Origin: Branchiostoma floridae
Lineage: Eukaryota > Chordata > Leptocardii > Amphioxiformes > Branchiostomatidae
DNA length: 64,000 bases
Assembly: GCF_000003815.2 (NCBI RefSeq)
Contig: NC_049993.1
Coordinates: forward strand, 18,641,392-18,705,391
Direction of reading: 5' to 3'
How positions within the stretch are numbered: the stretch's first letter is position 1; each line of letters starts with the position of its first letter. This document shows, one piece after another, positions 30,098 through 54,403 of the stretch. The translations under genes and the position numbers were made by a program. Below the pieces are notes generated by a model. The model worked only from the letters and a program-made list of their open reading frames with translations. It had not been told where the DNA came from and did not search any database.

Positions 30098-30463
30098 ATG
30101 CTATACAAGTGCAGCATGATTGTCGTTCAAGCTTTTGTCCTCATGTTTCTGAACGTTGCGCACAATTGTGAAGCATCAGCACTTTCACGACTGCGATCTC
30201 ATGGATGTGACGTTCATAATTCTACTTTAACCCAAATTTATTGTGACAACAAAGGTTTAACGAGTGTTCCCAAAGACCTGCCCTCAAACCTCTTTGAGCT
30301 TCATCTTCCCAACAACGCCCTGACCACGTTTCCCTGCATGGCTTTGCCGTATTTGAAGAACATGATGTTAAGAAACAACAGCATCAGTTACTTCCCTTGG
30401 TACTGTCTGAAAAACATGCTCAGGCTAGTTTATTTGGATTTGTCATATAATAAGCTGTTTTAG
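30098..30463 (+). CDS. Truncated secreted LRR protein C'
   Basis: 121 residues: signal peptide (MLYKCSMIVVQAFVLMFLNV), N-terminal Cys cap, and LRRs ending at LDLSYNKLF, where the full-size genes continue with CVNLYPVKPF. No LRRCT cap or membrane helix. The stop comes from a Penelope-like fragment joined at this point, as in all four truncated copies. Unlike its sisters it keeps both an open frame and a splice acceptor, so expression as a small secreted LRR protein is possible. It may equally be a young pseudogene. Confidence 0.6.
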   Translation: MLYKCSMIVVQAFVLMFLNVAHNCEASALSRLRSHGCDVHNSTLTQIYCDNKGLTSVPKDLPSNLFELHLPNNALTTFPCMALPYLKNMMLRNNSISYFPWYCLKNMLRLVYLDLSYNKLF

Positions 30464-31855: not shown

Positions 31856-32998
31856 ATGTTATCCAGCATGATTGTTGTTTTAGTTGTTATCCTAACACTT
31901 ATAAATGTACCACACACCTGTGAAGCATCAGCACTTTCACAGCTACTCTCTCACGGATGTAACGTTCAGAATCGGCACAATGGTAATTTACATTTATCAT
32001 TTTTGTCACCCCGAATTCATTGTGACAACAAAGGTTTAACGAGTGTTCCCAAAGAACTGCCCTCAAACCTCTTAGACCTTCAGCTTCCCAACAACGCCCT
32101 AACCACCGTTCCCTGCATGGCGCTACCCTACTTGAAAACCATGATCTTACGAAACAACAACATCAGTTACTTCCCTTGGTACTGTCTGAAGAACATGCCC
32201 AGGCTAGTTCATTTGGATTTGTCATATAATAAGCTGTTTTGTGTCAACCTGTATCCTGTAAAGCCCTTCCTATCGAACTTAAAATTTGTTAACATTTCCC
32301 ACAACAACATAAATACATTGTCTATGTGTGATCTTGGGTGGAACGAGCATGTACCAAATGGTAAGTTTATACCATACGCCCCTATTATAGCGGGTAACCC
32401 TTTCCACTGTAACTGTGAGATAACTTGGATCATTGATTGGGCGATGAAGGTGGAAAAGTGCCGAAAGGAAAGATCACAAAGATGTCAACATTTTATCAGG
32501 GCAATTTATATCGCCTTTGAAATGCACAAAGACCAGTCTCTGTTTCGCTGTAAAACACCACCTGAAGTCGGAAACGTAGAGCTCTACAGATTAGGTAGAT
32601 ACATCTCAGGATGTTATGCAGTCTGGGATCCGACAGGCGAAAACGGTAGAAACTACCTACCCGATCCTTGTGATCCTAACAGGTATTGTCCCACAGAGCA
32701 TCAAAATCTTCCTCCCCCTGACGTCATCACTTCGTCACTGTTGCCACTAGCAACCGCTGGTCCAGATCGATCTAGTGAGAAACCAAAACTGCAAAAGGCT
32801 GCAATAGATGAAATATCCCAAAACGTTACAAAAAATATATTGACAGATTTGCAGGATGGCGCCTCGATAGCCACTAGAACCTTCAATCAGGTGACAGATG
32901 TGGAAGAAGGGCGCAATGTTCACGCTGTGCCCGTGACAGAAACTCCAAAGAATCAGGAGACGTCATCTCCACAAACCGTTACCATGGCATCAGCCTGA
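31856..32998 (+). CDS. LRR receptor C, ectodomain only (nonsense before membrane helix)
   Basis: Nearly identical to gene B from ATG 31856 through the LRR and LRRCT caps and linker. TGG of the first juxtamembrane unit is TGA at 32996-32998, giving 380 residues with a signal peptide and no membrane anchor. The product would be a secreted LRR ectodomain. The downstream frame stays open to 33760 with membrane helix and tail, so the change is recent or is a sequencing error or allele. Confidence 0.85.
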   Translation: MLSSMIVVLVVILTLINVPHTCEASALSQLLSHGCNVQNRHNGNLHLSFLSPRIHCDNKGLTSVPKELPSNLLDLQLPNNALTTVPCMALPYLKTMILRNNNISYFPWYCLKNMPRLVHLDLSYNKLFCVNLYPVKPFLSNLKFVNISHNNINTLSMCDLGWNEHVPNGKFIPYAPIIAGNPFHCNCEITWIIDWAMKVEKCRKERSQRCQHFIRAIYIAFEMHKDQSLFRCKTPPEVGNVELYRLGRYISGCYAVWDPTGENGRNYLPDPCDPNRYCPTEHQNLPPPDVITSSLLPLATAGPDRSSEKPKLQKAAIDEISQNVTKNILTDLQDGASIATRTFNQVTDVEEGRNVHAVPVTETPKNQETSSPQTVTMASA

Positions 32999-33760
32999 GT
33001 GGTGACTGGATCAGTACCAAAGAATCAAAAGACGTCATTACCTCAAACCGTTGCCATGGCATCAGGCTGGGTGGTGACTGCATCATTAGCTGGAGTGACA
33101 GCTGTCCTCTGTAGCGTGGGTTTAGTTGTGTATTGTGCACTGGGTAGGAGACAATCTGACAACGCAACTGCGCAACTTGGTCATGTAAACAACATGCCGG
33201 CTGACCAAGTTGTAAACAACGTTTCTTATCACCAGGCTACCACCAGTCAGAACACCCAGGCTGATGATCAGGAAGGCTGCAGCAATGGTCCGGAAACAGA
33301 CTCGGACCCCTGCACATACGAAACTATACCTGACATAGAAGAACCGTATGCAACGGCTCATGGTTTTGTTGTGCCTCAATATCATATGTGGGAAATTGCA
33401 GACAAGACCAGTCCTAAGACAACAGAAGGTGCTTGTACCTTACCTGGTCCAGAAGCACATGCCTTTGATCCTGCCGACCAACATGGGGAAGTTACTGATG
33501 ACCACAAGGTTGAAAGTGAGGTGGTGAAGTCAGATACAGAGGTCTACGCAAATGAGCTTAAAACTAATACGGTTGAACCTTGTGAAATATCTCCTAATGT
33601 TTTTGAAGGTTCCAAAATGTACGGTCAATCCTGCATACAACAGGCTAAAACAACCAATGCATCTGAACCGTATTCAAATTCGAATCGTGAGTGTGACGTA
33701 TATACCCGCGAACAAACCGGCACCAGCAAAGAAGGTTCCAAAACGTACGGAAGGGAATAA
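32999..33760 (+). pseudogene. Membrane helix and tail of gene C beyond the stop
   Basis: In frame with 31856-32998 and otherwise open: second 24-residue unit, WVVTASLAGVTAVL helix, tail with YETIPDI and EVYANEL (YxN kept). It ends KTYGRE-stop at 33760 rather than YGID. It would be translated only by readthrough or from a TGG allele. Confidence 0.75.
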
Positions 33761-33942
33761 TCTCCAGGCAGAACCTACGGTAGCATATAATAAGATAATA
33801 TCAAAAGCTGACAGAGGAATGAAGCCGGCTTAGCAGTGAGTTTCGCTACGCGGCAAATGGACACCCCTAAGCCGGCTAGCGCTTCACTCCTCTGCCAGTT
33901 TTTGATATTATCTTATGCTACCGTAGGATCTGCTTGGAGATT
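33758..33942. repeat. Foldback element after gene C
   Basis: Same element as 25395-25536, again starting at the TAA stop. The left arm has a 5-base insertion (CATATAATAAG). The right arm matches TATTATCTTATGCTACCGTA. Confidence 0.85.
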
Positions 33943-34202
33943 TGAAAGTGATGGCATCAGGCAGTTTGCTCGCTCATCTGCCTATTCAACTGGACATGGA
34001 AAGCAAAATACACTGACCTTGTATTCCCAAACATCTAAATGATGACGAACGTAAACCTGTTCATGTGAAGATATTAAACTTCATAAATTCAACAATTTAA
34101 GTTCTAAACCATTGTACGTTTCTCAGCTTAAATTTACATCGTGATACTTTACCCTAACGAATGAATATGAATCAGTCCCAGACGCCATTAGAATGGTATC
34201 GC

Positions 34203-34390
34203 AAACTTATCGAAAAGAATAGGAGCCTGGCCGCATCTGGTTCAATTACTGTCGTATTGAGGTCACCTGAGTGGCGCTGAATGACAGCTCGCTCCAGACA
34301 CTGGCAATTTGCTCCATCTATGGTAAGCTCCTCAATATTCAGCCCCTGGCTACGAAGAAGGAGTAGTCGGCCCACGCAACAACGATAACA
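34203..34390 (+). mobile_element. SINE-like insertion in gene C 3' flank
   Basis: About 190 bases present in C, D and E but absent at the same place in A and B (GAATGGCATCGCACATGATG is uninterrupted in B). The head has GGTTCAATTAC; the end resembles CGGCCCACGCAACAACGAT. Confidence 0.65.
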
Positions 34391-35454
34391 CATGATGCAA
34401 CGTCATGCTGTACAGTTGCCTTTATGTACTAACTTTCATCTTTAATTTCAAAGCCCGAATTCTAACGTGTAAATATATAGCGTTCACACTTTTGGGTTAC
34501 GACAATGGAATATTCAGCAATGAATGATGTGAATGTAATTATCCATGCACATATTTGTTTGACTGCAGAAGGATGTAAAACCAAGTGAATGACATGTGTA
34601 AGAATTGTAGATTCCTGCGCCAGCAACTAAACTAAAAAAGATAAACGATGTCAATATTTTTGTAGATGTGGTATATAAACTAGATGTTTTATTGGTTCGG
34701 ATATAAAACTATATGTTTTAATAGTTGGAGTATATAAACTACATTGTAACTTTCAGTAATGGCTGACACGCCGAATGATACACTTTTTATTTTCGTGATG
34801 AGCGGCTTGAGTCTTGATGTTAAGAACGCTCTGGATCTAATATATAACACCAACCGATGTTTAAAGTTTCGGAGAGTTAATTCGAAAGTTACGTAAGTTG
34901 TTTAATTTTAGCAAGTTTTGCTCTAGAAGGAGTGAATGTTTTAGCACGTGACGTTGGGCACATTGTGGTTGCTGAACAGTGTTTTGTGCCAATAAAGGTA
35001 TTGCAACGGCTTATCAAATAAAAGTGTATACGATATATGTTAACACATGTTTTGTTTTGAGTTGAGTTTGAATTTATTGGATGTAGTATTCCAGAGCTCA
35101 CATAAATAAAAAAATATACACGTACTGAAAAAGAAACAATAATATGCAAATACAGATCAGAAATATATAAAAATACAGGCTCAAAGTCTAAAACTACGAT
35201 GGGAGGTCAGAGGTCACACTAAGATATACATTAAATCATTATGATCCGTAGAATTGGTCTATCATCCTCTTGAACAATCGCGTATCAGATACAATATCAA
35301 ATTCTCTGGGTAACGAATGGCAAAGCTTTACCGATCTATACGCAAACGTCCTCAATTTCACCGGTGCCCGTCGGGGGTGCAGCCCCGGCCGGGCTCCGGT
35401 GGACTGTCGGATACCTCATTACGTCATGCAACAGTTTGACGTTTTATCCTTGTT

Positions 35455-36420
35455 TTTTTTCACGGTACCTTCTCCCCCCGCCTTTTACCTCCCTAAACTA
35501 CGTCATGTACCCATTTTGATAGACACCTGGGTGGAGTGAAGACATTCCTTTAAAGTGACTATTACAAGGACACAAGATTTGTCCTCTGTGTTCTGGACCA
35601 AATATTCTGCAGGTACACCACACGACCCCACAGGCATGTTGGAGGCACATGCAATTTAAATATTAGAGTGCATGCAGATTGGTCTGCTCTAATCACCCAC
35701 GCACAGAAAATCGTTGAAGATTGTTCTCGAGAAAATGAAGTTAGCTCCTGCCAAGATTAGCCAGATTTTGATCTTCAATGTGTAGATATATATTTAGCAA
35801 AGGCATACTTGGGGCCGTAAACAGTTGGACGTTTTATGTGAGTTTTTTTCTATGGTACCCCCCCCCCCCCGCCCCCAACCACACCTTTTACCTCCCCAAT
35901 GAAGTCAGGTACCCATTTTATAAACACCCGGATAGAGTGACGAAATCTCTTAAAGTGACTATTTAGGGCACAAGATTGGAACCATGATAGGATTCGAACC
36001 CATGACCTCTGGGTTCTGGACAAGCACCCAGCAGATACATGTACACCACACGACACCACAGGCACTTTCGAGGCACGCGTGCAGTTGAAGCATGCAGATT
36101 GGTCTGCTCTAATCACCCACGCACAGAAATTTGACGATTATTCTCAAGAAGACGAAGTTAGCCGCTGACAAGATGAGACAGATTTTGCAGATTTTGCTCT
36201 TCAATGTGAATATTTAGCAAAGGCATACTTTTTCATGGTACCCACTTTTTCATGGTACCCTCTCCCCTCACCGTGAAAGAAATTCCCTTAAAGTGAGCAT
36301 TACAAGGGCACAAGACCGGAATTATGATAAGATTCGAACCCATGACCTCTGGGGTCTGGACAAGCACACCATTAGACCCCACAGGCACGTTGGAGACACG
36401 CGTGCAGTTTAAACATCAGA
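35455..36420 (-). mobile_element. Three tRNA-SINE copies, minus strand, unit 3
   Basis: Copies at about 35455-35650, 35850-36085 and 36232-36415, each followed by the GCAGATTGGTCTGCTC-type block. Two have the B-box complement GATTCGAACCCATGACC; the first has lost its central part. Unit 3 therefore has one more SINE-plus-flank copy than units 1 and 2. Confidence 0.6.
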
Positions 36421-36504
36421 GCACATGCATCTGCTCTAATCACCCACGCACAGAAACCTTGAAGATCATTCTCGAGAAAATGAAGTTAGCCCCTGCCAAG
36501 ATGA

Positions 36505-38045
36505 AGAGTCATCACGTGTCCAGCCGCCATCGCCAGACGAACGAATCAGCGTCTTTTCTCCCCACTCCGCGTTCAGCAGGTGTGACAGGAGGCGGCGTCT
36601 TGGCCAGCTGCAGTATCTTCAGGTGAGCAAGATACCTTAAACAAAGTAACATAAAAAAACTACATGACGTAGTAATCAAGAAAATCACAACATATAATCC
36701 TTGCCTTTTTCTTATCAAACAAGTTCTGCGGAAAAATATATTCGTTGCTGGCTATTTTATGTTGTTTTGCATTCTATCGTGATTTTGCATCAATAAGTAT
36801 AAACTGTTTTATTTTGACGTGTAGAATGAGAATAGAGAATTGAAAGAAAGACCTGAGACATCCGAAGAAGAGAAAGTTCGAGACGGTCTTTTCAGTCCCA
36901 AGATAGACCATTCTATCCAGGACCTCTGGGTCCTGAGCCAGACGAACCCACTTGAACAAAGTAGCAAGATGGAGATGAGTATAATATGTTAACGTAGCAA
37001 TCAGTATAGTGACAAAAAAGACTGTCGGACATTGTCTTTTTGGGTACGCTCATAAGTACAAACTTAGACATATTCGCTGCTTGTTACAAACCGTTGTTAT
37101 GCCTCTTTCTCGAAGTCATGCTGATGATTTCGTTTTGATATATAGGATACCAGAGCAGAGCCCAAGACATCCGTAAGGAGTGCTGGAGGAAGTTGAGCCG
37201 ATCTTCTCAGCCCAAAGATCAACTGTCATTCAAGAACAGGGACGGTAGTGTCCAGCAAAACCAAGTGACAGTGGTTAGATAGAGTACTTCATATCTTCAA
37301 TATTTTCAGAGACAGTAAATAACATAATATGTACATTGTGGTGCAGCAGTTACAATCGTGTGTTGTTGAATGTATTTAGAGTCTTAAACGGTGATAAACT
37401 GTGAAAAGAGGAAATTTTGTTTTGATATGTAGGAGACCAGAGCAGAACCCGAGACATCCGTTAGGAGTGCTGAAGGAAGTTAAGAGCTGATCTTCTCAGC
37501 CCAAAGATCGACTGCGATCCGAGAACAGGGAAGATTGTGTCCACCTAAACCAAGTGACAGTGGTTAGACAGAGTACTTCATATCTTCAATATTTTCAGAG
37601 ACAGTAAACTACATAATATGTACATTGTGGTGCAGCAGTTGAAATCGTGTGTTGTTGAATGTATTTAGAGAGTTAAACGGTGATACACAGTGAAAATAGG
37701 AAATAGTAATTGTCCGATCGCTGTAATATATTGTTAATCAACTGTTGTTCCCTAGTCGGACGACGGAATATATCCATCTTTTTGTATACGTATCTAATCA
37801 CTTTTATGACAAAAACTGTGTGACTATATGGATTCTAGTTGAATCATCAGTGCCACATATTCTGAAAGACAACTTTAACGAGGTAAAAGTAAGTCCATAG
37901 TCTTTTTGAGGCCTTAGGGCCAGTGGGTTGTATCCCTTTCTCCGCCTTTACGTCCCCAATCATGACCAGGTACCCATTTTACATCTAAGCATGAAGTGAG
38001 GAAAGACGTGTTAAGTTCCATTCATCGTTTGTCACTGCATAAAAC
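36505..38045 (+). promoter_or_regulatory. Leader region of truncated copy D', exon 3 duplicated
   Basis: E-box CACGTG near 36514 and leader exon 1 ending ATCTTCAG|GTGAGC. Leader exon 3 occurs twice (about 37146-37265 and 37433-37556). Exon 2 lacks its GT donor (GGAG|ATGAGT). The acceptor before D' is TTTGTCACTGCAT, so AG is lost. Confidence 0.55.
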
Positions 38046-38406
38046 ATGCGATACAAGTGCAGCACGATTGTCGTGCTATCTTTTGTCCTCATGTTTCTGA
38101 ACTTTCACAATTGCGAAGCTTCAGCGCTATTACGACTGCGATCTCATGGATGTGACGTTCTGAATTCTACTTTAACCCAAATTTATTGTGACAACAAAGG
38201 TTTAACGAGTGTTCCCAAAGACCTGCCTTCAACACTCTAAGCGCTTCAGCTCCCGAATAACGCCCTGACCACGTTCCCCTGCATGGCTCTGCCGTATTTG
38301 AAGAACATGATGTTAAGAAACAACAGCATCAGTTACTTCCCTTGGTACTGTCTGAAAAACATGCCCAGGCTAGTTTATTTGGATTTGTCATATAATAAGC
38401 TGTTTT
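38046..38406 (+). pseudogene. Truncated LRR copy D', broken
   Basis: Opens like C' but ends at an early TAA at 38238-38240 after LPSTL, through a small change in the first LRR. Homology continues to SYNKLF-stop at 38406. The splice acceptor is mutated too. Confidence 0.85.
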
Positions 38407-38574
38407 AGAGCACGTTTCAGTACAATGTACTGTCCTGCAGTAAAATGTGAATCAGTCAGAATTGCCCTGAAGAAGGTGACAGACGGTCACAGAAACGTCG
38501 GTGTGGAATAAACGTATGGTTGTGTAAAAAGAGTCTCTTTATTCAGTGATGTACCAACTTGATGAAACTATTCA
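38407..38574 (+). mobile_element. Penelope-like 3' fragment, unit 3
   Basis: Co-linear with 21889-22057. The hammerhead-like core is at 38467-38499 (CTGAAGA ... GAAACGTC). Confidence 0.6.
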
Positions 38575-39189
38575 CAGTCAAGAAAAGTGTAATATGTTAA
38601 AGGTTAATTGTCTGCCTCTCTATGGGATTGCGTGGTATGTTTTCACCACTGCTACGATAATCTCTTCTCTCGTCTGTTGTCGGGTATGAATAAGTCAACA
38701 GTTCATCTTCTGCAAAAATCACAGTTTTGATCCTGCCTTTTGTAAACTAAACTAAAGCGAGGTTTTGATGGTGTCGTTTGTACAACTAATTGTGTTAAGT
38801 AAACTAACACAGACAAACTTTGGGACTTGCTTCCTTTAATAGACATGGTTACAGTGATATATACTTCTTTTAAAAAATCGATTTTAATGTTTTCATTAAA
38901 AAAATAACCCACCATCTTACATCGATGTAGGTAGAGTTTGTTTATTCAGTTTTCTTGACTGCCATTACAGGAGCTTCAGGCGGTTGCCTCTCACAGCCTG
39001 GCCTTAGTTCTGTAGCTCATCTTTTCACAGGTATGTAAATTATTGATTCAGACTGTCTGATTTTCATCAGTTTCTTTAGAAGACCAAAACGTTCCCGTTG
39101 GATTTCCTGAATCTAATTCCCGTAACTCCTGTGGTCTGCCGGAAATGCCGTTTGTTCCATTTCCAGCACACAACAGGAAGGTTTCTACT

Positions 39190-39289
39190 NNNNNNNNNNN
39201 NNNNNNNNNNNNNNNNNNNNNNNNNNNNNNNNNNNNNNNNNNNNNNNNNNNNNNNNNNNNNNNNNNNNNNNNNNNNNNNNNNNNNNNNN
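39190..39289. other. Assembly gap (100 N)
   Basis: Exactly 100 unknown bases, a conventional size for a gap of unknown length, in the leader of gene D. Other units suggest little sequence is missing. Confidence 0.99.
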
Positions 39290-39503
39290 ACGACTTGCCT
39301 CCAGATTAAGACTACGACCGAGAAAACGTAAGAATAGTCGTTTTAGGCCTAAGATTACACGTCCTCCAACCAAGAGCAGCAACACCTTTTTTTCGCAACA
39401 GTCCCCGTTACAGTGTTGAAAAACATACCACACAATCCCATATAGAGAGGCAGACAATTAACATTTAAATATCTTACAGTTTTCTTCACTACCATTACTA
39501 CAG

Positions 39504-40039
39504 GGGGCACGGCGGCAGATTCTCACAGCCTGGCAGTCTATAGCCCATCTTTTCAAAGGTATGTAAACGTCTGATTCAGTACGTTTACTTTTCTATTTTT
39601 TTATTTGGAAGAATGAAAACTTAATGTTTAATTTCTTCAATCCAAATTCCTTTCTTTTTTAAATTTCCAGCAGACCTCAGTCAGGTTTCTGGTGAAGACA
39701 CGAAACGAACCGCCTCCAAGTCAAGACTGCGACAGAGGAAACTTGAGAACAGTCGTCCAAGATTACGTCCTCCAGCCAAGAGCAGCGACACCTTTTTTTC
39801 AACTGTTCCCGTAACTATCAATGGTCAGACTGTCTGAATTGCATTTGTATTGGTTCATTAACAAGCGACAATTGATTGGTGTTCTCTACTGATTAAATAA
39901 GCTTGAGGGTTTATTGAGCACATATTAGAGTAGACTTAATACAACAATTCAAAGCTGTGTGTGTGCGTAAATAGTAAACAGTTCAGTCCCGACGAAAAAC
40001 TTTTTGTCCCTGCAGCCAACATACAGCACCCGAGCCAGC
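39504..40039 (+). promoter_or_regulatory. Leader exon and 5' coding-exon region of gene D
   Basis: Leader exon 39504-39558 (CTACAG / CAAAG|GTATGT), acceptor TTTCCAGCAG near 39671, then untranslated sequence to ATG 40040. Near-identical to units 2 and 4. Confidence 0.6.
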
Positions 40040-41026
40040 ATGTTATCCAGCATGATTGTTGTTTTAGTTGTTATCCTAACACTTATAAATGTACCACACA
40101 CCTGTGAAGCATCAGCACTTTCACAGCTACTCTCTCACGGATGTAACGTTCAGAATTGGCACAATGGTAATTTACATTTATCATTTTTGTCACCCCGAAT
40201 TCATTGTGACAACAAAGGTTTAACGAGTGTTCCCAAAGAACTGCCCTCAAACCTCTTAGACCTTCAGCTTCCCAACAACGCCCTAACCACCGTTCCCTGC
40301 ATGGCGCTACCCTACTTGAAAACCATGATCTTACGAAACAACAACATCAGTTACTTCCCTTGGTACTGTCTGAAGAACATGCCCAGGCTAGTTCATTTGG
40401 ATTTGTCATATAATAAGCTGTTTTGTGTCAACCTGTATCCTGTAAAGCCCTTCCTATCGAACTTAAAATTTGTTAACATTTCCCACAACAACATGAATAC
40501 ATTGTCTATGTGTGATCTTGGGTGGAACGAGCATGTACCAAATGCTAAGTTTATACCATACGCCCCTATTATAGCGGGTAACCCTTTCCACTGTAACTGT
40601 GAGATAACTTGGATCATTGATTGGGCGATGAAGGTGGAAAAGTGCCGAAAGGAAAGATCACAAAGATGTCAACATTTTATCAGGGCAATTTATATCGCCT
40701 ATGAAATGCACAAAGACCAGTCTCTGTTTCGCTGTAAAACACCACCTGAAGTCGGAAACGTAGAGCTCTACAGATTAGGTAGATACATCTCAGGATGTTA
40801 TGCAGTCTGGGATCCGACAGGCGAAAACGGTAGAAACTACCTACCCGATCCTTGTGATCCTAACAGGTATTGTCCCACAGAGCGTCAAAATCTTCCTCCC
40901 CCTGACGTCATCACTTCGTCACTGTTGCCACTAGCAACCGCTGGTCCAGATCGATCTAGTGAGAAACCAAAACTGCAAAAGGCTGCAATAGATGAAATAT
41001 CCCAAAACGTTACAAAAACATATTGA
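40040..41026 (+). CDS. LRR receptor D, ectodomain only (frameshift)
   Basis: Ectodomain as in gene B. One A is missing in the run after NVTK (ACAAAAACATATTGA versus ACAAAAAATATATTGA in B), so the frame ends KTY-stop at 41026. The product is 328 residues, secreted, with complete LRR and LRRCT caps and without linker, membrane helix or tail. Gene E carries the same change. Confidence 0.85.
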   Translation: MLSSMIVVLVVILTLINVPHTCEASALSQLLSHGCNVQNWHNGNLHLSFLSPRIHCDNKGLTSVPKELPSNLLDLQLPNNALTTVPCMALPYLKTMILRNNNISYFPWYCLKNMPRLVHLDLSYNKLFCVNLYPVKPFLSNLKFVNISHNNMNTLSMCDLGWNEHVPNAKFIPYAPIIAGNPFHCNCEITWIIDWAMKVEKCRKERSQRCQHFIRAIYIAYEMHKDQSLFRCKTPPEVGNVELYRLGRYISGCYAVWDPTGENGRNYLPDPCDPNRYCPTERQNLPPPDVITSSLLPLATAGPDRSSEKPKLQKAAIDEISQNVTKTY

Positions 41027-41943
41027 CAGATTTGCAGGATGGCGCCTCGATAGCCACTAGAACCTTCAATCAGGTGACAGATGTGGAAGAAGGGCGCAAT
41101 GTTCACGCTGTGCCCGTGACAGAAACTCCAAAGAATCAGGAGACGTCATCTCCACAAACCGTTACCATGGCATCAGCCTGGGTGGTGACTGGATCAGTAC
41201 CAAAGAATCAAAAGACGTCATTACCTCAAACCGTTGCCATGGCATCAGGCTGGGTGGTGACTGGATCAGTAGCTGGAGTGACAGCTGTCCTCTGTAGCGT
41301 GGGTTTAGTTGTGTATTGTGCACTGGGTAGGAGACAATCTGACAACGCAACTGCGCAACTNNNNNNNNNNNNNNNNNNNNNNNNNNNNNNNNNNNNNNNN
41401 NNNNNNNNNNNNNNNNNNNNNNNNNNNNNNNNNNNNNNNNNNNNNNNNNNNNNNNNNNNNNNNNNNNNNNNNNNNNNNNNNNNNNNNNNNNNNNNNNNNN
41501 NNNNNNNNNNNNNNNNNNNNNNNNNNNNNNNNNNNNNNNNNNNNNNNNNNNNNNNNNNNNNNNNNNNNNNNNNNNNNNNNNNNNNNNNNNNNNNNNNNNN
41601 NNNNNNNNNNNNNNNNNNNNNNNNNNNNNNNNNNNNNNNNNNNNNNNNNNNNNNNNNNNNNNNNNNNNNNNNNNNNNNNNNNNNNNNNNNNNNNNNNNNN
41701 NNNNNNNNNNNNNNNNNNNNNNNNNNNNNNNNNNNNNNNNNNNNNNNNNNNNNNNNNNNNNNNNNNNNNNNNNNNNNNNNNNNNNNNNNNNNNNNNNNNN
41801 NNNNNNNNNNNNNNNNNNNNNNNNNNNNNNNNNNNNNNNNNNNNNNNNNNNNNNNNNNNNNNNNNNNNNNNNNNNNNNNNNNNNNNNNCCGCGAACAAAC
41901 CGGCACCAGCAACGAAGGTTCCAAAACGTACGGAATCGATTAA
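41027..41943 (+). pseudogene. Out-of-frame membrane and tail part of gene D
   Basis: One frame back from the ectodomain, this encodes two 24-residue units, the membrane helix and, after a 528-base gap, the GSKTYGID end. It has no ATG in the expected frame near its start. Confidence 0.75.
41361..41888. other. Assembly gap (528 N) in gene D tail
   Basis: Covers most of the D cytoplasmic tail. By comparison with E the gap length is about right. Confidence 0.99.
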
Positions 41944-42126
41944 TCTCAAAGCAGAACCTACGGTAGCATATAATAAGATAATATCAAAAGCTGACAGAGG
42001 AATGAAGCCGGCTTAGCAGTGAGTTTCGCTACCCGGCAAATGGACGCTCCTAAGCCGGCTAGCGCTTCACTCCTCTGCCAGCTTGTGATATTATCTTATG
42101 CTACCGTAGGATCTACTTGGAGATTT
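41941..42126. repeat. Foldback element after gene D
   Basis: Same structure as after C and E, starting at the TAA that ends the tail frame. Confidence 0.85.
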
Positions 42127-42386
42127 GAAAGTGATGGCATCAGGCAGTTTGCTCGCTCATCTGCCTATTCATCTGGACAGGAAAAACAAAATACAACGAC
42201 ATTGTATTCACAAACATCTAAACGATGACGAACGTAAACCTGTTCATGTGAAGATATTAAACTTCATAAATTCACAATTTAAGTTCTAAACCATTGTACG
42301 TTTCTCAGCCTAAATTTACATCGTGATACTTTACCCTAACGAATGAATATGAATCAGTCCCAGACGCCATTAGAATGGTATCGCAA

Positions 42387-42572
42387 ACTTATCGAAAAGA
42401 ATAGGAGCCTGGCCGCATCTGGTTCAATTACTGTCGTATTGAGGTCACCTGAGTGGCGCTGAATGACAGCTCGCTCCAGACACTGGCAATTTGCTCCATC
42501 TATGGTAAGCTCCTCAATATTCAGCCCCTGGCTACGAAGAAGGAGTAGTCGGCCCACGCAACAACGATAACA
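42387..42572 (+). mobile_element. SINE-like insertion in gene D 3' flank
   Basis: Identical position and near-identical sequence to 34203-34390, so it was inserted before these units duplicated. Confidence 0.65.
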
Positions 42573-43604
42573 CATGATGCAACGTCATGCTGTACGGTTG
42601 CCTTTATGTACTAACTTTCATCTTTATTTTCAAAGCCCGAATTCTAACGTGTAAATACATAGCGTTCACACTTTTGGGTTACGACAATGGAATATTCAGC
42701 AATGAATGATGTGAATGTAATTATCCATGCACATATTTGTTTAACTGCAGAAGGATGTAAAACCAAGTGAATGACATGTGTAAGAAGTGTAGATTCCTGC
42801 GCCAGCAACTAAACTAAAAAAGATAAACGATGTCAGTGTTTTTGTAGATGTGGTATATAAACTAGATTATTTTTTTTAGTTTTATTGGTTCGGATATAAA
42901 ACTATATGTTTTAATAGTTGGAGTATAAAAACTACATTGTGACTTTCAGTAATGGTTGACACACCGAATGATACACTTTTTATGTTCGTAATGAACGCTC
43001 TGGATCTAATAAATAATACCAACCGATGTTTAAAGTTTCGAAGAGTTAATTTGGAAGTTACGTAAGTTGTTTAATTTTAGCAAGTTTTGCTCTAGAAGGA
43101 GTGAATGTTTTAGCACGTGACGTTGGGCACATTGTGGTTGCTGAACAGTGTTTTGTGCCAATAAGGGTACTTCAACGGCTAATCAAATAAAGGTGTATAC
43201 GATATATTTTAACACGTTTTCTTTTGAGTTGAGTTTGAATTTATTGGAGGTAGTATTCCGGAGCTCACATAAATAAAAGAATATACACGTACTGAAAAAG
43301 AAACAATAATATGCAAATACAGATCAGAAATATATAGAAATACAAGCTCAAAGTCTAAAACTACGATGGGAGGTAAGAGGTCACACTAAGACATACATTA
43401 AATCATTATGATTCGTTGAACAATCGCGTATCAGATACAATCTTAAATTCTCTAGGTAACGAATGGCACCGCTTTACCGATCTATACGCAAACGTCCTCA
43501 ATTTCACCGGTGCCCGTCGGGGGTGTAGCCCCGGCCGGGCTCCGGTGGACTGTCGGATACCTCATTACGTCATGCGACAGTTTGACGTTTTACCATGTTT
43601 TTTT

Positions 43605-44180
43605 TTTCACGGTACTCTCTCCCCCCGCCTTTTACCTCCCTAAAGTACGTCATGTACCCATTTTGATAGACACCTGGGTGGAGTGAAGACATTCCTTTAA
43701 AGTGACTATTACAAGGACACAAGATTTGAACCATAATAGGATTGGAACCCATGTCCTCTGTGTTCTGGACCAAACATTCTGCAGGTACACTACACAACCC
43801 CACAGGCACGTTGGAGGCACATGCAATTTAAATATTAGAGTACATGCAGATTGGTCTGCTCTAATCACCCACGCACAGAAAATCGTTGAAGATTATTCTC
43901 AAGAAGATGAAGTTAGTCGCTGACAAGATGAGACAGATTTTGCAGATTTTGCAGATTTTGCTCTTCAATGTGAATATTTAGCAAAGGCATACTTTTTCAT
44001 GGTACCCACTTTTTCATGGTACCCTCTCCCCTCACCGTGAAAGTAATTCCCTTAAAGTGAGCATTACAAGGGCACAAGACCGGAACCATGATAAGATTCG
44101 AACCCATGACCTCTGGGGTCTGGACAAGCACACCATTAGACCCCACAGGCACGTTGGAGACACGCGTGCAGTTTAAACAT
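43605..44180 (-). mobile_element. Two tRNA-SINE copies, minus strand, unit 4
   Basis: Copies at about 43605-43830 and 44000-44175 with the complement of GGATTGGAACCC or GATTCGAACCC B boxes, upstream of the unit 4 leader. Confidence 0.6.
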
Positions 44181-44264
44181 CAGAGCACATGCATCTGCTC
44201 TAATCACCCACGCACAGAAACCTTGAAGATCATTCTCGAGAAAATGAAGTTAGCCCCTGCCAAG

Positions 44265-45504
44265 ATGAAGGGCCATCATCTGTCCAGCCGCCATTGCCAG
44301 ACGAATCAGCGTCTTTTCTCCTCACTCCGCGTTCAGCAGGTGTGACAGGAGGCGGCGTCTTGGCCAGCTGCAGTATCTCCAGGTGAGCAATCAAGATACC
44401 TTAAACAAAGTAACATAAAAAACTACATGACGTAGTAATCAAGAAAATCACAACATATAATCCTTGCCTTTTTCTTATCAAACAAGTTCTGCGGAAAAAT
44501 ATATTCGTTGCTGGCTATTTTATGTTGTTTTGCATTCTATCGTGATTTTGCATCAATAAGTATAAGCTGTTTTATTTTGACGTGTAGAATGAGAATAGAG
44601 AATTGAAAGAAAGACCTGAGACATCCGAAGAAGAGAAAGTTCGAGACGGTCTTTTCAGTCCCAAGATAGACCATTCTATCCAGGACCTCTGGGTCCTGAG
44701 CCAGACGACCCCACTTGAACAAAGTAGCAAGATGGGTATATGTTATCATAACGTAGCAATCAGTATAATGACAAAAAAGACTGTCGGACATTCTCTTTTT
44801 GGGTACTCTCATAAGTACAAACCCAGACATATTCGCTGCTTGTTACAAACCGTTGTTATGCCTTTTTCTCGAAGTCATGCTGATGATTTCGTTTTGATAT
44901 ATAGGATACCAGAGCAGAACCCAAGACATCCGTAAGGAGTGCTGGAGGAAGTTGAGCCGATCTTCTCAGCCCAAAGATCAACTGTCATTCAAGAACAGGG
45001 ACGGTAGTGTCCAGCAAAACCAAGTGACAGTGGTTAGACAGAGTACTTCATATCTTCAATATTTTCAGAGACAGTAAACAACATAATATGTACATTGTGG
45101 TGCAGCAGTTACAATCGTGTGTTGTTGAATGTATTTAGAGTCTTAAACGGTGATAAACGGTGAAAAGAGGAAATAGTAATTGTCCGATCGCTGTAATATA
45201 TTGTAAATCAACTGTAATTCCCACGACGGAATATATCCATCTTTTTGTATTCAATCACTTTGATGACAAAGACAGTGTGACTATATGGATTCTAGTTGAA
45301 TCATCAGTGCCACATACAACAAAAGACAAATTTAACGAGGTATAAGTAACTCCATATAGTCTTTTTGAGGCCTTAGGGCCAGTGGGTTGTATCCCTTTCT
45401 CCGCCTTTACCTCCCCAACCATGGCCAGGTACCCATTTTATACCTAGGCATGAAGTGAGGAAAGTCGTGTTAAGTTCCATTTATCGTTTGTCACTGTGGA
45501 AAAC
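44265..45504 (+). promoter_or_regulatory. Leader region of truncated copy E'
   Basis: The E-box is degraded to CATCTG (near 44270). Leader exon 1 ends ATCTCCAG|GTGAGC. Exon 2 lacks a donor. An exon 3 equivalent lies at about 44905-45022. The acceptor before the LRR is CACTGTGG, so AG is lost. Confidence 0.5.
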
Positions 45505-45867
45505 ATGCGATACAAGTGCAGCACGATTGTCGTGCTATCTTTTGTCCTCATGTTTCTGAACTTTCACAATTGCGAAGCTTCAGCGCTATTACGACTGCGA
45601 TCTCATGGATGTGACGTTCTGAATTCTACTTTAACCCAAATTTATTGTGACAACAAAGGTTTAACGAGTGTTCCCAAAGACCTGCCCTCAAACCTCTTTG
45701 AGCTGCAGCTTCCCAACAACGCCCTGTCAAGTGGTTCATTCCCCGCGTTGCCCTATTTGAAGAACATGATGTTAAGAAACAATAACATCAGTTACTTCCC
45801 TTGGTACTGTCTGAAAAACATGCCCAGGCTAGTTTATTTGGATTTGTCATATAATAAGCTGTTTTAG
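45505..45867 (+). CDS. Truncated LRR copy E', open frame
   Basis: 120 residues from MRYKCSTIVV through signal peptide, Cys cap and LRRs to SYNKLF-stop. NNALSSGSFPALPYL replaces NNALTTFPCMALPYL, a local replacement that removes a Cys. The frame is intact but the upstream splice acceptor is mutated, so normal expression is doubtful; it may be a pseudogene. Confidence 0.5.
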   Translation: MRYKCSTIVVLSFVLMFLNFHNCEASALLRLRSHGCDVLNSTLTQIYCDNKGLTSVPKDLPSNLFELQLPNNALSSGSFPALPYLKNMMLRNNNISYFPWYCLKNMPRLVYLDLSYNKLF

Positions 45868-46029
45868 AGCACGTTTCAGTACAATGTACTGTCCTGCAGT
45901 AAAATGTGAACCAGTCAGAATTGCCCTGAAGAAGGTGACAGACGGTCACCGATACGTCGGTGTGGAATAAACGTATGGTTGTGTAAAAAGAGTCTCTTTA
46001 TTCAGTGTATGTACCAACCTGATGAAACT
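45868..46029 (+). mobile_element. Penelope-like 3' fragment, unit 4
   Basis: Co-linear with 21889-22057. The core is at 45926-45958 with GAAA changed to GATA, which should inactivate a hammerhead. Confidence 0.6.
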
Positions 46030-46348
46030 ATTCATAGTCAAGAAAAGTGTAAGTATGTTTAAAGGTCAATTGTCCGCCTCTCTATGGGATTGCGTGGTAT
46101 GTTTTTCACCACTGCTACGTATAATCTCTTCTCTCGTCTGTTGTGCGGGTATGATATAAGTCAACAGTTCTATCTTCCGCAAAAATCACAGTTTTGACGC
46201 CGCCTTTTGTAAACTAAACTAAAGCGAGCTTTTGATGGTGTCGTTTGTACAACTAATTGTGTTAAGTAAACTAACACAGACAAACTTTGGGACTTGCTTC
46301 CTTTAATAGACATGGTTACAGTGATATATACTTCCTTAAAAAAAAATC

Positions 46349-46500
46349 NNNNNNNNNNNNNNNNNNNNNNNNNNNNNNNNNNNNNNNNNNNNNNNNNNNN
46401 NNNNNNNNNNNNNNNNNNNNNNNNNNNNNNNNNNNNNNNNNNNNNNNNNNNNNNNNNNNNNNNNNNNNNNNNNNNNNNNNNNNNNNNNNNNNNNNNNNNN
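46349..46500. other. Assembly gap (152 N)
   Basis: In the leader of gene E, where the inverted block and first leader module should be. Confidence 0.99.
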
Positions 46501-46731
46501 CTACTAAAGATACTTAACGACTTGCCTCCAGATTAAGACTACGACCGAGAAAACGTAAGAATAGTCGTTTTAGGCCCAAGATTACACGTCCTCCAACCAA
46601 GAGCAGCAACACTCTTTTTTTCCCAACAGTCCCCGTTACAGTGTTGAAAAACATACCACACAATCCCATATAGAGAGGCAGACAATTAACATTTAAATAT
46701 CTTACAGTTTTCTTCACTACCATTACTACAG

Positions 46732-47267
46732 GGGGCACGGCGGCAGATTCTCACAGCCTGGCAGTCTATAGCCCATCTTTTCAAAGGTATGTAAACGTCT
46801 GATTCAGTACGTTTACTTTTCTATTTTTTTATTTGGAAGAATGAAAACTTAATGTTTAATTTCTTCAATCCAAATTCCTTTCTTTTTTAAATTTCCAGCA
46901 GACCTCAGTCAGGTTTCTGGTGAAGACACGAAACGAACCGCCTCCAAGTCAAGACTGCGACAGAGGAAACTTGAGAACAGTCGTCCAAGATTACGTCCTC
47001 CAGCCAAGAGCAGCGACACCTTTTTTTCAACTGTTCCCGTAACTATCAATGGTCAGACTGTCTGAATTGCATTTGTATTGGTTCATTAACAAGCGACAAT
47101 TGATTGGTGTTCTCTACTGATTAAATAAGCTTGAGGGTTTATTGAGCACATATTAGAGTAGACTTAATACAACAATTCAAAGCTGTGTGTGTGCGTAAAT
47201 AGTAAACAGTTCAGTCCCGACGAAAAACTTTTTGTCCCTGCAGCCAACATACAGCACCCGAGCCAGC
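46732..47267 (+). promoter_or_regulatory. Leader exon region of gene E
   Basis: Leader exon 46732-46786 (CTACAG / CAAAG|GTATGT), acceptor TTTCCAGCAG near 46900, and untranslated sequence to ATG 47268. Confidence 0.6.
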
Positions 47268-48254
47268 ATGTTATCCAGCATGATTGTTGTTTTAGTTGTT
47301 ATCCTAACACTTATAAATGTACCACACACCTGTGAAGCATCAGCACTTTCACAGCTACTCTCTCACGGATGTAACGTTCAGAATCGGCACAATGGTAATT
47401 TACATTTATCATTTTTGTCACCCCGAATTCATTGTGACAACAAAGGTTTAACGAGTGTTCCCAAAGAACTGCCCTCAAACCTCTTAGACCTTCAGCTTCC
47501 CAACAACGCCCTAACCACCGTTCCCTGCATGGCGCTACCCTACTTGAAAACCATGATCTTACGAAACAACAACATCAGTTACTTCCCTTGGTACTGTCTG
47601 AAGAACATGCCCAGGCTAGTTCATTTGGATTTGTCATATAATAAGCTGTTTTGTGTCAACCTGTATCCTGTAAAGCCCTTCCTATCGAACTTAAAATTTG
47701 TTAACATTTCCCACAACAACATAAATACATTGTCTATGTGTGATCTTGGGTGGAACGAGCATGTACCAAATGGTAAGTTTATACCATACGCCCCTATTAT
47801 AGCGGGTAACCCTTTCCACTGTAACTGTGAGATAACTTGGATCATTGATTGGGCGATGAAGGTGGAAAAGTGCCGAAAGGAAAGATCACAAAGATGTCAA
47901 CATTTTATCAGGGCAATTTATATCGCCTTTGAAATGCACAAAGACCAGTCTCTGTTTCGCTGTAAAACACCACCTGAAGTCGGAAACGTAGAGCTCTACA
48001 GATTAGGTAGATACATCTCAGGATGTTATGCAGTCTGGGATCCGACAGGCGAAAACGGTAGAAACTACCTACCCGATCCTTGTGATCCTAACAGGTATTG
48101 TCCCACAGAGCGTCAAAATCTTCCTCCCCCTGACGTCATCACTTCGTCACTGTTGCCACTAGCAACCGCTGGTCCAGATCGATCTAGTGAGAAACCAAAA
48201 CTGCAAAAGGCTGCAATAGATGAAATATCCCAAAACGTTACAAAAACATATTGA
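47268..48254 (+). CDS. LRR receptor E, ectodomain only (frameshift)
   Basis: 328 residues, almost identical to D, with a few substitutions (NHNINTL versus NHNMNTL, NGKF versus NAKF, FEMH versus YEMH). It carries the same one-base deletion and KTY-stop. Signal peptide, Cys cap, LRRs and LRRCT are complete, so a stable secreted protein is plausible. Confidence 0.85.
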   Translation: MLSSMIVVLVVILTLINVPHTCEASALSQLLSHGCNVQNRHNGNLHLSFLSPRIHCDNKGLTSVPKELPSNLLDLQLPNNALTTVPCMALPYLKTMILRNNNISYFPWYCLKNMPRLVHLDLSYNKLFCVNLYPVKPFLSNLKFVNISHNNINTLSMCDLGWNEHVPNGKFIPYAPIIAGNPFHCNCEITWIIDWAMKVEKCRKERSQRCQHFIRAIYIAFEMHKDQSLFRCKTPPEVGNVELYRLGRYISGCYAVWDPTGENGRNYLPDPCDPNRYCPTERQNLPPPDVITSSLLPLATAGPDRSSEKPKLQKAAIDEISQNVTKTY

Positions 48255-49171
48255 CAGATTTGCAGGATGGCGCCTCGATAGCCACTAGAACCTTCAATCA
48301 GGTGACAGATGTGGAAGAAGGGCGCAATGTTCACGCTGTGCCCGTGACAGAAACTCCAAAGAATCAGGAGACGTCATCTCCACAAACCGTTACCATGGCA
48401 TCAGCCTGGGTGGTGACTGGATCAGTACCAAAGAATCAAAAGACGTCATTACCTCAAACCGTTGCCATGGCATCAGGCTGGGTGGTGACTGGATCAGTAG
48501 CTGGAGTGACAGCTGTCCTCTGTAGCGTGGGTTTAGTTGTGTATTGTGCACTGGGTAGGAGACAATCTGACAACGCAACTGCGCAACTTGGTCATGTAAA
48601 CAACATGCCGGCTGACCAAGTTGTATACAACGTTTCTTATCACCCAGCCACCACCAGTCAGAACACCCAGGCTGATGATCAGGAAGGCGGCAGCAATGGT
48701 CCGGAAACAGACTCGGACCCCTGCACATACGAAACTATACCTGACATAGAAGAACCGTATGCAACGGCTCATGGTTTTGTTGTGCCTCAATATCATATGT
48801 GGGAAATTGCAGACAAGACGAGTCCTAAGACAACAGAAGGTGCTTGTACCTTACCTGGTCCAGAAGCACATGCCTTAGATCCTGCCGACCAACGTGGGGA
48901 AGTTACTGATGACCACAAGGTCGAAAGTCAGGTGGTGAAGTCAGATACAGAGGTCTACGCAAATGAGCTTAAAACTAATACGGTTGAACCTTGTGAAATA
49001 TCTCCTAATGTTTTTGAAGGTTCCAAAATGTACGGTCAATCCTGTATACAACAGGCTAAAACAACCAACGCATCTGAACCGTATTCAAATTCGCGTCGTG
49101 AGTGCGACGTATATAACTGCGAACAAACCGGCACCAGCAACGAAGGTTCCAAAACGTACGGAATCGATTAA
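48255..49171 (+). pseudogene. Out-of-frame membrane and tail part of gene E
   Basis: Complete homolog of the B linker, two 24-residue units, membrane helix (WVVTGSVAGVTAVLCSVGLV) and tail with YETIPDI, EVYANEL and YGID end, one frame back from the ectodomain. The long open frame means the deletion is young or the segment is still used. Confidence 0.75.
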
Positions 49172-52831: not shown

Positions 52832-54403
52832 ATGTTATCCAGCATGATTGTTGTTCTGGTTGTGACCTTTCCCCTTTCAAACGTACTGCACAGTTGTGAT
52901 GCATCAGCACTTTCACAGCTACTCTCTCACGGGTGTAACGTTCAGAATTGGTATATGATACATTTGTCTCGTTTACTCCGGATACATTGTGACAACAAAG
53001 GCTTAACGGGTGTTCCCGAAGAACTGCCTTTAGGCCTCTTTGAGCTTCAGTTTCCCAACAACGCCCTGACCACTTTTCCCTGCATGGCCCTGCCTTATTT
53101 GAACACGTTAAACCTAAGGAACAATACGATAACTTACTTCCCATGGCACTGTGTGAAGAACATGCCCAGGCTAGTTCATTTGGATCTGTCTCATAATCAG
53201 CTGTTCTGTGTCCACCTGTATCCTGTGAAGTCCTTCGTATCAAACTTGAGAATGGTAGACATTTCCTTCAATAACATAAAAACATTGTCTACGTGCGATC
53301 TTGGGTTTGACATATATGCACAAAATGGGAACCGTTTACATTACTTACCTATCATAGCAGGTAACCCATTCCACTGTAACTGCGACATCACTTTTATCAT
53401 TGATTTCGCGATAAAGGCGGAAACGTGCCGAAATAAAACATCACGAAAATGTGATTTTCTCAGAACAAATGATATTGCATTTGGCATGTACAAAGACCAG
53501 TCTTTGTTCCGCTGTAAAACACCACCTATAGTAGAGAACGTAGAGCTCCACAGGTTAAATGGATTTATGAATATTTCAGGATGTTATTTTTTCTGGGATC
53601 CGACAGGCGTAGATAATATACTCTACCTACCCGAGCCCTGTGATCCTAACAGTACCTGCCCCACAGAGCGCCAGGATATTCGTCCCTCTGACATCATCAC
53701 TACGTCATTGTTGCCCCTAGCAACCGCTGGTCCAGATCGATCCAATGAGAACATTACAGAAACGCCAAAGAATCAGGAGACGTTATCTCAGACCGTTGCC
53801 AAGGCATCAGGCTGGGTGGTGACTGGATCAGTAACTTTGGGGATAGCTGTCCTCTGTAGCATGGGTGTATTTTTTTATTGTGCACTGGGTAGGAAAAGAT
53901 CTAACAACGCAACTGCGCAACTTGGTCATGTAAGCAACATTGCGGCTGGCCAACTTGCAAATAATGTTTGTTATCAACAAACTACGACCATTCAGAACAC
54001 CCAGGCTGATGATCAGGAAGGCTGCAGCAATGGTCTGGAAACAGACCCCGATTCCTGCACATACGAAGCTTTACCCGAAACAGATCCGTATGCAATGTCA
54101 CCTTATGTTTTTGATGTGCCTCAATATCATATTGGGGAAAGGACTGAGAAGACCAGTCCTAGAAAGAAAACAGAAGGTGCTAGTACCTTTGGTCCAGAAG
54201 CAGATACGGAGCCCTCCGTAAATGATGTCGACTCCGACACGATTGAAGCCTATGAATCAGATGAACCTCAATGTCAATTTGGGGAAGATAAGACGGAGGC
54301 TAAAATCAGTAATAATAATACTGAAGGCGCCAAAACCTTAGATGTATATAGCCCAGATGTACAGGCTTCTGAGACTGCCTCCTTTGGTGGAGAAGCTTCT
54401 TAA
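52832..54403 (+). CDS. LRR transmembrane receptor F, full length, divergent
   Basis: 523 residues from the conserved MLSSMIVVL start (ATG 52802 in frame would add 10). Signal peptide, Cys cap, LRRs (LQFPNNALTTFP, LNLRNNTITYFP, HLDLSHNQLF, MVDISFNNIKTL), LRRCT (NPFHCNCDITFIIDFA), a short linker, one 24-residue unit, membrane helix (WVVTGSVTLGIAVLCSMGVFFYCAL), and a tail with TYEALPETDPY and QYHIGE. The last ~80 residues differ from B-E (acidic, ending FGGEAS), and the YxN motif near the B tail end is absent. With B it is one of two genes open over the whole architecture. Divergence from B-E shows it is outside the recent array expansion. Confidence 0.9.
   Translation: MLSSMIVVLVVTFPLSNVLHSCDASALSQLLSHGCNVQNWYMIHLSRLLRIHCDNKGLTGVPEELPLGLFELQFPNNALTTFPCMALPYLNTLNLRNNTITYFPWHCVKNMPRLVHLDLSHNQLFCVHLYPVKSFVSNLRMVDISFNNIKTLSTCDLGFDIYAQNGNRLHYLPIIAGNPFHCNCDITFIIDFAIKAETCRNKTSRKCDFLRTNDIAFGMYKDQSLFRCKTPPIVENVELHRLNGFMNISGCYFFWDPTGVDNILYLPEPCDPNSTCPTERQDIRPSDIITTSLLPLATAGPDRSNENITETPKNQETLSQTVAKASGWVVTGSVTLGIAVLCSMGVFFYCALGRKRSNNATAQLGHVSNIAAGQLANNVCYQQTTTIQNTQADDQEGCSNGLETDPDSCTYEALPETDPYAMSPYVFDVPQYHIGERTEKTSPRKKTEGASTFGPEADTEPSVNDVDSDTIEAYESDEPQCQFGEDKTEAKISNNNTEGAKTLDVYSPDVQASETASFGGEAS

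What the first reader, a model, noticed from the sequence alone, without database searches (positions are those of the whole stretch)
31856..49171. Three of four array receptors have lost the membrane anchor by two independent mutations
C has TGG to TGA just before the membrane helix. D and E share a one-base deletion in an A-run. All keep an intact signal peptide, LRRs and LRRCT, and the parts lost are still nearly open. Repeated loss at the ectodomain/anchor boundary suggests soluble or decoy forms rather than random decay.
Basis: partly seen in the sequence, partly recalled or inferred. Interest (0 to 1): 0.75.

Follow-up and report, generated by a model that had tools for sequence, protein, structure and literature searches.

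The report
Truncated LRR receptors in young array
In a tandem array of single-exon leucine-rich-repeat receptor genes of what looks like an amphioxus genome, three near-identical copies end before the membrane anchor; the truncations are in the sequence, but they are too few and too young to show selection for secreted decoys, and ordinary gene turnover with gene conversion explains them.

Summary
The lesions are in the sequence. Copy B (23424-25397) encodes a 657-aa receptor: signal peptide, LRRs, an LRRCT-like cap, a stalk, one membrane helix and a tyrosine-rich tail. C ends at TGA 32996-32998 (380 aa). D and E end at 41026 and 48254 (328 aa each) through a shared frameshift.

Three corrections. 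The D/E change is compound: AAAAAAT in B/C against AAAAAC in D/E. D and E share one event. D's whole 2-kb block lies between two assembly gaps.

"Rather than random decay" is not supported. B-E share a block of about 0.5% divergence, while the 3' flanks of B and of C or E are 13-14% apart. That fits recent gene conversion or crossover, so open frames and missing ectodomain stops say little. Ectodomain differences are 6 nonsynonymous to 1 synonymous. Two events both landing in the stalk has a chance probability of about 0.08-0.09. Of 36 family copies examined, 9 lack the anchor in the ectodomain frame; by events, about 5 lie in the stalk and 3-4 in the ectodomain (P 0.07-0.11).

If translated, C, D and E would most likely be secreted; the genes appear intronless, so exon-junction NMD should not remove them. 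Selected decoys remain possible but unproven.

The parts
23424..25397 (+). Copy B: intact 657-aa single-exon LRR receptor (signal peptide, LRRs, LRRCT-like cap, stalk with three 72-bp repeats, TM helix about aa 435-453, tyrosine-rich tail)
31856..32998 (+). Copy C: 380 aa, ends at TGA 32996-32998 before the TM helix; the rest of the frame is open to 33760
40040..41026 (+). Copy D: 328 aa, frameshift in the A-run (41014-41019) then stop; on a gap-bounded 2-kb stretch
47268..48254 (+). Copy E: 328 aa, same frameshift as D (48242-48247); lost part open to 49171
16533..17792 (+). Copy A: 419 aa, keeps TM, stop codons in the cytoplasmic tail
52832..54403 (+). Copy F: 523 aa from this ATG (533 aa from an upstream ATG), keeps TM, tail ends at a triple stop
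23053..24852 (+). Homogenised block as seen in B (5' flank, ectodomain, stalk, TM start), about 0.3-1% divergent among B-E, against 13-14% for B versus C or E in the 3' flank
24513..24728 (+). 72-bp tandem repeat in the B stalk (3 copies; 2 in C, D, E), overlapping the start of the TM-coding segment; C's TGA lies in C's copy of this repeat
30098..30463 (+). Short LRR fragment in unit C (121 aa); sister fragments near 21.5k, 38.0k and 45496-45867, all ending at NKLF-stop; those at 21.5k and 38.0k carry further internal stops
39190..39289 (.). Run of 100 N at the left edge of D's block
41361..41888 (.). Run of N inside D's lost tail region
46349..46500 (.). Run of N at the left edge of E's block

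Best explanation
A young tandem array of single-exon LRR receptor genes (probably immune-type, probably Branchiostoma floridae) turns over by duplication, deletion and gene conversion. A roughly 1.8-kb block holding the promoter-proximal DNA, ectodomain and stalk has been homogenised across copies B-E. Two ordinary disabling mutations arose in the fast-changing, repeat-bearing stalk. One (C) is private. The other (D/E) was copied between units by conversion or duplication, or is one locus placed twice by the assembly. Shown: lesions, polarity, homogenised block, weak constraint on the lost part. Inferred: if transcribed, the copies would secrete LRR ectodomains, because a signal peptide remains, no helix remains, and intronless genes escape exon-junction NMD. 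There is no evidence that this has been selected; most likely it is a passing, nearly neutral stage on the way to pseudogenes or to being overwritten by an intact sister copy.
For: B versus E: 6 differences in 1345 bp of 5' flank plus ectodomain against 108 in 1162 bp of tail plus 3' flank (Fisher P 6e-30). Synonymous divergence B versus C is 0.0044 before and 0.057 after the lesion point, which points to recombination, not selection. Ectodomain differences in B-E are 6 nonsynonymous to 1 synonymous. Short sister fragments, 5.4-9.0% apart, carry ectodomain stops in 2 of 4 copies. Tail stops in A and F show decay beyond the anchor boundary. In 15 of the 27 helix-bearing family members, the helix/tail part has median dN/dS 0.70 against 0.44 for the ectodomain, higher in 97 of 105 pairs. 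The 72-bp stalk unit is in 3 copies in B, 2 in C-E and not repeated in the six others aligned. The sister array keeps the helix in 8 of 8 genes.
Against: Anchor loss with most of the ectodomain kept is seen up to five times in this genome (C, D/E, L019, L034, L036), somewhat more than stalk length alone predicts (P 0.066, or 0.112 with the short fragments counted). C, D and E keep B-like 5' DNA. No transcript or protein data were available either way. Structure prediction of the truncated product did not run.
Confidence: 0.66

Rival explanations
1. Selected soluble forms: the truncated copies are secreted and act as decoys or opsonins that share the ligand of the anchored receptor B; loss of the anchor is adaptive and recurrent.
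For: Signal peptide and ectodomain retained with helix absent in C, D, E; further anchor-loss cases at L034 (breaks at the start of the helix-coding segment) and L019; the family-wide ectodomain is more constrained than the tail; 5' flank retained.
Against: Two events in this array, chance P about 0.08-0.09; family tilt not significant; no excess of synonymous over nonsynonymous change in the truncated ectodomains; L019's stop is next to an N run and L036's start is masked by one; D is gap-bounded.
Confidence: 0.15
2. Assembly artefact: near-identical blocks were mis-joined, duplicated or mixed between haplotypes, so that D (and its shared lesion with E) is not a separate gene, and C's single base may be a consensus error.
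For: D's block lies between two N runs and the gap edge coincides with the start of the near-identical block; E's block begins at another gap; D-E divergence (6 mismatches in 2072 aligned) is about a tenth of the heterozygosity of 3.2-4.2% quoted for amphioxus (PMC12500494, passages).
Against: The C and E genes lie on sequence without N; the D/E change is compound, not a plain homopolymer slip; units differ by 5.4-9.0% in their short fragments, so the tandem units look real; the genome search listed no further copy at 99% or more.
Confidence: 0.14
3. The truncations are bypassed: unrecognised splicing or recoding in the stalk still yields an anchored protein.
For: The lost frame is open to the tail in C and E; stalk length is very variable between members.
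Against: 27 of 36 family copies, B included, read from ectodomain through the helix in one frame; no splice site or recoding signal was searched for by a tool or demonstrated; helix/tail constraint is weak.
Confidence: 0.05

Closest known systems
BbLcLRR, amphioxus Lck-associated inhibitory LRR receptor (PMC8211107; abstract, sections 24 and 27 and passages read)
   Same: Single-pass amphioxus LRR receptor of similar size (699 versus 657 aa) with functional tyrosines in its tail; B's tail has 13 tyrosines.
   Different: BbLcLRR is reported with a WSC domain and motifs its authors call ITIMs; B has no WSC hit and no tyrosine fitting the strict ITIM, only two Yxx[ILVF] and two YxN sites, one tyrosine being both. 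Its sequence was not compared here.
Amphioxus VLR-like protein Bf66946 (PMC4731796, outline and abstract read)
   Same: Amphioxus LRR ectodomain; reported to bind Gram-positive bacteria.
   Different: No direct sequence comparison was made; B's ectodomain matches Slit2, VLR chimeras, LRRC32 and platelet GPIb chains at general LRR level (60 of 152 matches shown).
Secreted decoy receptors made by truncation, for example DAF-2B of C. elegans (PMC13421766, start of abstract seen in a search listing)
   Same: Ectodomain without membrane anchor made beside an anchored receptor.
   Different: DAF-2B is described there as a secreted isoform that sequesters ligands; here only genomic frames exist, without expression or function.
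Lancelet dispensable immune genes, presence/absence variation (PMC12373286, passages read)
   Same: Fast-turning, lineage-specific immune-type families in which gene content varies between animals.
   Different: That paper reports whole-gene presence/absence; the terms LRR and leucine-rich do not occur in its main text.

Membership tests
Soluble decoy receptor | Ligand-binding ectodomain with signal peptide, no membrane anchor | tested here: met
   C, D, E: N-terminal hydrophobic segment and no other stretch at Kyte-Doolittle 1.6 or more; 7 of 325 codons vary among B-E, none a stop. Ligand binding itself was not tested
Soluble decoy receptor | Expressed and secreted | not testable with these tools
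   no transcript or protein data
Soluble decoy receptor | Competes for the ligand of a signalling receptor | not testable with these tools
   ligand unknown
Soluble decoy receptor | Selection maintains the truncated form | tested here: inconclusive
   6 nonsynonymous to 1 synonymous in codons 1-325; too few changes
Recent (segregating or young) pseudogene | Disabling change derived relative to relatives with an intact frame | tested here: met
Recent (segregating or young) pseudogene | Relaxed constraint after the lesion | tested here: inconclusive
   post-lesion C-E dN/dS 0.76, but intact relatives also show a median of 0.70 in the helix/tail
BbLcLRR-type ITIM receptor | ITIM [IVLS]xYxx[IVL] in the tail | tested here: not met
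   0 of 13 tail tyrosines of B
BbLcLRR-type ITIM receptor | WSC domain | tested here: not met
   no Pfam WSC hit at E up to 0.1 in five full-size array proteins (A, B, C, E, F; D was not scanned) and one short fragment
Extracellular LRR receptor with LRRNT/LRRCT caps | LRRs plus cysteine caps | tested here: met
   LRR_8 above cut-off in all six proteins scanned; LRRNT above cut-off only in the short fragment, below it in A, B, C, E and absent in F; LRRCT by pattern and weak PDB matches only, no Pfam hit

The most novel reading that the evidence does not exclude
The array is a conversion-driven switchboard. Because the stalk lesions lie inside the block that gene conversion spreads between units, anchored and soluble versions of the same ectodomain can be swapped between loci, so animals differ in the ratio of membrane to secreted receptor, and this dosage variation is kept by balancing selection.
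Probability: 0.07. Interest if true: 0.8.

Novelty: new member of a known kind. Interest (0 to 1): 0.3.

Why it matters
If the truncated copies were expressed and selected, a basal chordate would be making secreted LRR recognition proteins by breaking receptors at the anchor, a germline parallel to the membrane and secreted forms of jawless-fish VLRs (parallel mine). As the evidence stands, it is a clear case of how gene conversion and a variable stalk can produce apparently patterned truncations, and a caution against reading selection into young duplicates.

Tried and rejected
Rejected: (1) that an intact ectodomain and nearly open tail show preservation: the copies are too similar and the older short fragments do decay. 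(2) That the block identity reflects selection on the ectodomain: the noncoding 5' flank is nearly as similar and synonymous divergence B-C changes about 13-fold within the gene. (3) That D/E is a simple homopolymer error: the change is compound. (4) That extra alleles on unplaced contigs could show the population state: the DNA search listed only the four near-identical copies B-E (49 candidates, 40 scored, so a lower bound). One unplaced contig, C307, holds a relative of the C5 gene L032: 98.5% over 1202 bp, then a break at the helix start. (5) Structure prediction of the truncated product: not run, machine busy three times. (6) Papers: judged by the titles and abstract starts listed, the searches showed nothing on anchor loss in amphioxus LRR arrays; this holds only for that library, those terms and the rows listed. 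PMC10199209 (outline and abstract) concerns a GPI-anchored LRR protein and was not used.

Limits. The stalk fraction of 0.31 used in the binomial tests is my estimate from helix positions, typed in as an assumption. The census of 36 copies comes from a query made mostly of ectodomain, so copies that lost their ectodomain are under-counted. Short fragments were left out of the 36 and enter only the 5-of-9 test. Several helix-bearing copies (for example L014, L026, L031, L032) show no N-terminal segment at my hydropathy cut-off; I did not follow that up. For one search I used 15 of the 27 helix-bearing copies. The expected-stop arithmetic leaves out indels. The species name is recalled from genome size and contig number; no call names it.
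Full report
Where it is. The window is G000:C15:18641392-18705391 of a genome of 513,431,437 bases in 431 contigs. I take it to be Branchiostoma floridae from recalled assembly size; no call names it.

What is there. Six full-size, apparently intronless LRR receptor genes lie on the + strand: A 16533-17792, B 23424-25397, C 31856-32998, D 40040-41026, E 47268-48254, F 52832-54403. B is intact at 657 aa. It has a signal peptide and a membrane helix near residues 435-453, LRR_8 above Pfam's cut-off and a cysteine cap of LRRCT type, seen only by pattern and weak PDB matches because Pfam's LRRCT model gave no hit. Its tail has 13 tyrosines; none is a strict ITIM, two are YxN and two Yxx[ILVF], one being both. 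Each unit B-E also has a short LRR fragment that ends at NKLF-stop; those near 21.5k and 38.0k carry further stops.

The lesions. C has TGA at 32996-32998 where B, D and E have TGG. The nearest gene outside the array, L013 (85% identical DNA), keeps the frame at the D/E site. Both lesions are therefore derived, and D and E share one event. A and F keep the helix but have stops in the tail.

Assembly. There are N runs at 39190-39289, 41361-41888 and 46349-46500. D's block 39290-41360 is an island between two of them, and E's begins straight after the third. The left edges coincide with the start of the near-identical block, as expected when an assembler breaks at a repeat boundary. The C and E genes contain no N. 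D should not be counted as an independent witness.

Why the four copies look alike. Across 5' flank plus ectodomain, B and E differ at 6 of 1345 sites; across tail plus 3' flank at 108 of 1162 (Fisher P 6e-30). B-C shows the same (8 of 1346 against 117 of 1163, P 5e-31), C-E more weakly (2 of 1345 against 45 of 1407, P 2e-11), and D-E shows no contrast (P 0.72, with most of D's tail missing). The noncoding 5' flank is nearly as similar as the ectodomain (B-E 3 of 371 and 3 of 974), and B-C synonymous divergence goes from 0.0044 to 0.057 across the lesion point. This looks like recombination history (conversion or crossover), not selection on the ectodomain. D and E differ by 6 mismatches in 2072 aligned bases. 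With the rate of 5.1e-9 per base per generation quoted in PMC12500494 (passages) this is, by my arithmetic, about 0.28 million generations, and about a tenth of the 3.2-4.2% heterozygosity quoted there.

Is the pattern more than chance? Among possible single-base stops in B, 86 of 288 (29.9%) fall between residues 246 and 431, which are 28.3% of the length. Two independent events both there has P about 0.08-0.09. Of substitutions in the lost part, 141 of 2970 (4.75%) would make a stop; C and E differ there by 24 sites, one of them C's own TGA, so about half a stop per lineage is expected even if all changes came after the lesion, and seeing none says little. The 7 variable ectodomain codons are 6 nonsynonymous and 1 synonymous. 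The short fragments, 5.4-9.0% apart, show what a longer time does: ectodomain stops in 2 of 4.

Family census. The genome search scored 40 of 49 candidates, so it is a lower bound. I examined 36 full-size copies: 6 here, 8 in a second array about 0.3 Mb away, 22 elsewhere. The helix is in the ectodomain's frame in 27 of 36: 3 of 6 here, 8 of 8 in the second array, 16 of 22 elsewhere. The nine without are C, D, E, L019, L030, L034, L036, L038 and L041. Calling D/E one event, the stalk-side cases are C, D/E, L034, L019 and L036; the ectodomain cases are L030, L038 and L041. L030 also has a stalk stop; L019's stop is next to an N run, and L036's start is masked by one. With a stalk share of 0.31 (my estimate), 5 of 8 has P 0.066, and 5 of 9 with the short fragments as one event P 0.112. 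L034, on unplaced contig C307, is 98.5% identical to L032 over 1202 bp and then diverges where the helix begins.

Constraint. In 15 of the 27 helix-bearing members (105 pairs), median dN/dS is 0.44 for the ectodomain and 0.70 for a stretch of up to 95 residues beginning ten before the helix, the latter higher in 97 pairs. The stalk carries a 72-bp tandem repeat that overlaps the start of the helix-coding segment, 3 copies in B and 2 in C-E; C's stop lies in it. A variable, weakly constrained stalk is where lesions would be tolerated or arise without any advantage.

How it most likely works. B is an anchored LRR receptor of immune type, by analogy with BbLcLRR (PMC8211107, abstract, sections 24 and 27 and passages read), though B lacks the WSC domain and strict ITIMs. 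C, D and E, if transcribed, would most likely give secreted ectodomains with stalks of different length; in intronless genes exon-junction NMD would not act (general knowledge). That they serve as decoys is a hypothesis without positive evidence. The ordinary account, birth and death with conversion, covers the observations made here and fits the report that lancelet immune genes are over-represented among dispensable genes (PMC12373286, passages).

Verdict. Observation confirmed with corrections. Interpretation plausible as to product, unsupported as to selection.

Noticed in passing
L034 (C307:5400-9500) versus L032 (C5:7615500-7620000): An unplaced contig holds a relative 98.5% identical over 1202 bp that diverges at the start of the helix-coding segment, giving a 352-aa frame without a helix; L032 is an intact 611-aa receptor.
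   Followed up: partly
L040 (C7:19312500-19317900): A single 927-aa open frame contains two family ectodomains in a row followed by one helix.
   Followed up: no
L043 (C19:13915000-13919500): An 850-aa open frame appears to carry tail segments (around B 452-538) more than once.
   Followed up: no
15 intact family members, e.g. window:23424-25397 versus L013: In 12 of 14 comparisons with B the helix and tail have lower synonymous divergence than the ectodomain (B-L013 0.149 versus 0.338; medians over all 105 pairs 0.505 versus 0.63), while B against L018 and L031 goes the other way; this suggests tail exchange between members or two tail classes.
   Followed up: partly
window:24513-24728, 32945-33085, 41128-41271, 48356-48499: The 72-bp stalk repeat duplicates the first codons of the helix segment, so the stalk repeats carry copies of the TM start.
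   Followed up: partly
window:21501-21900, 30098-30463, 38022-38400, 45496-45867: Four short LRR fragments, one per unit, end at the same NKLF-stop; two carry further stops.
   Followed up: partly
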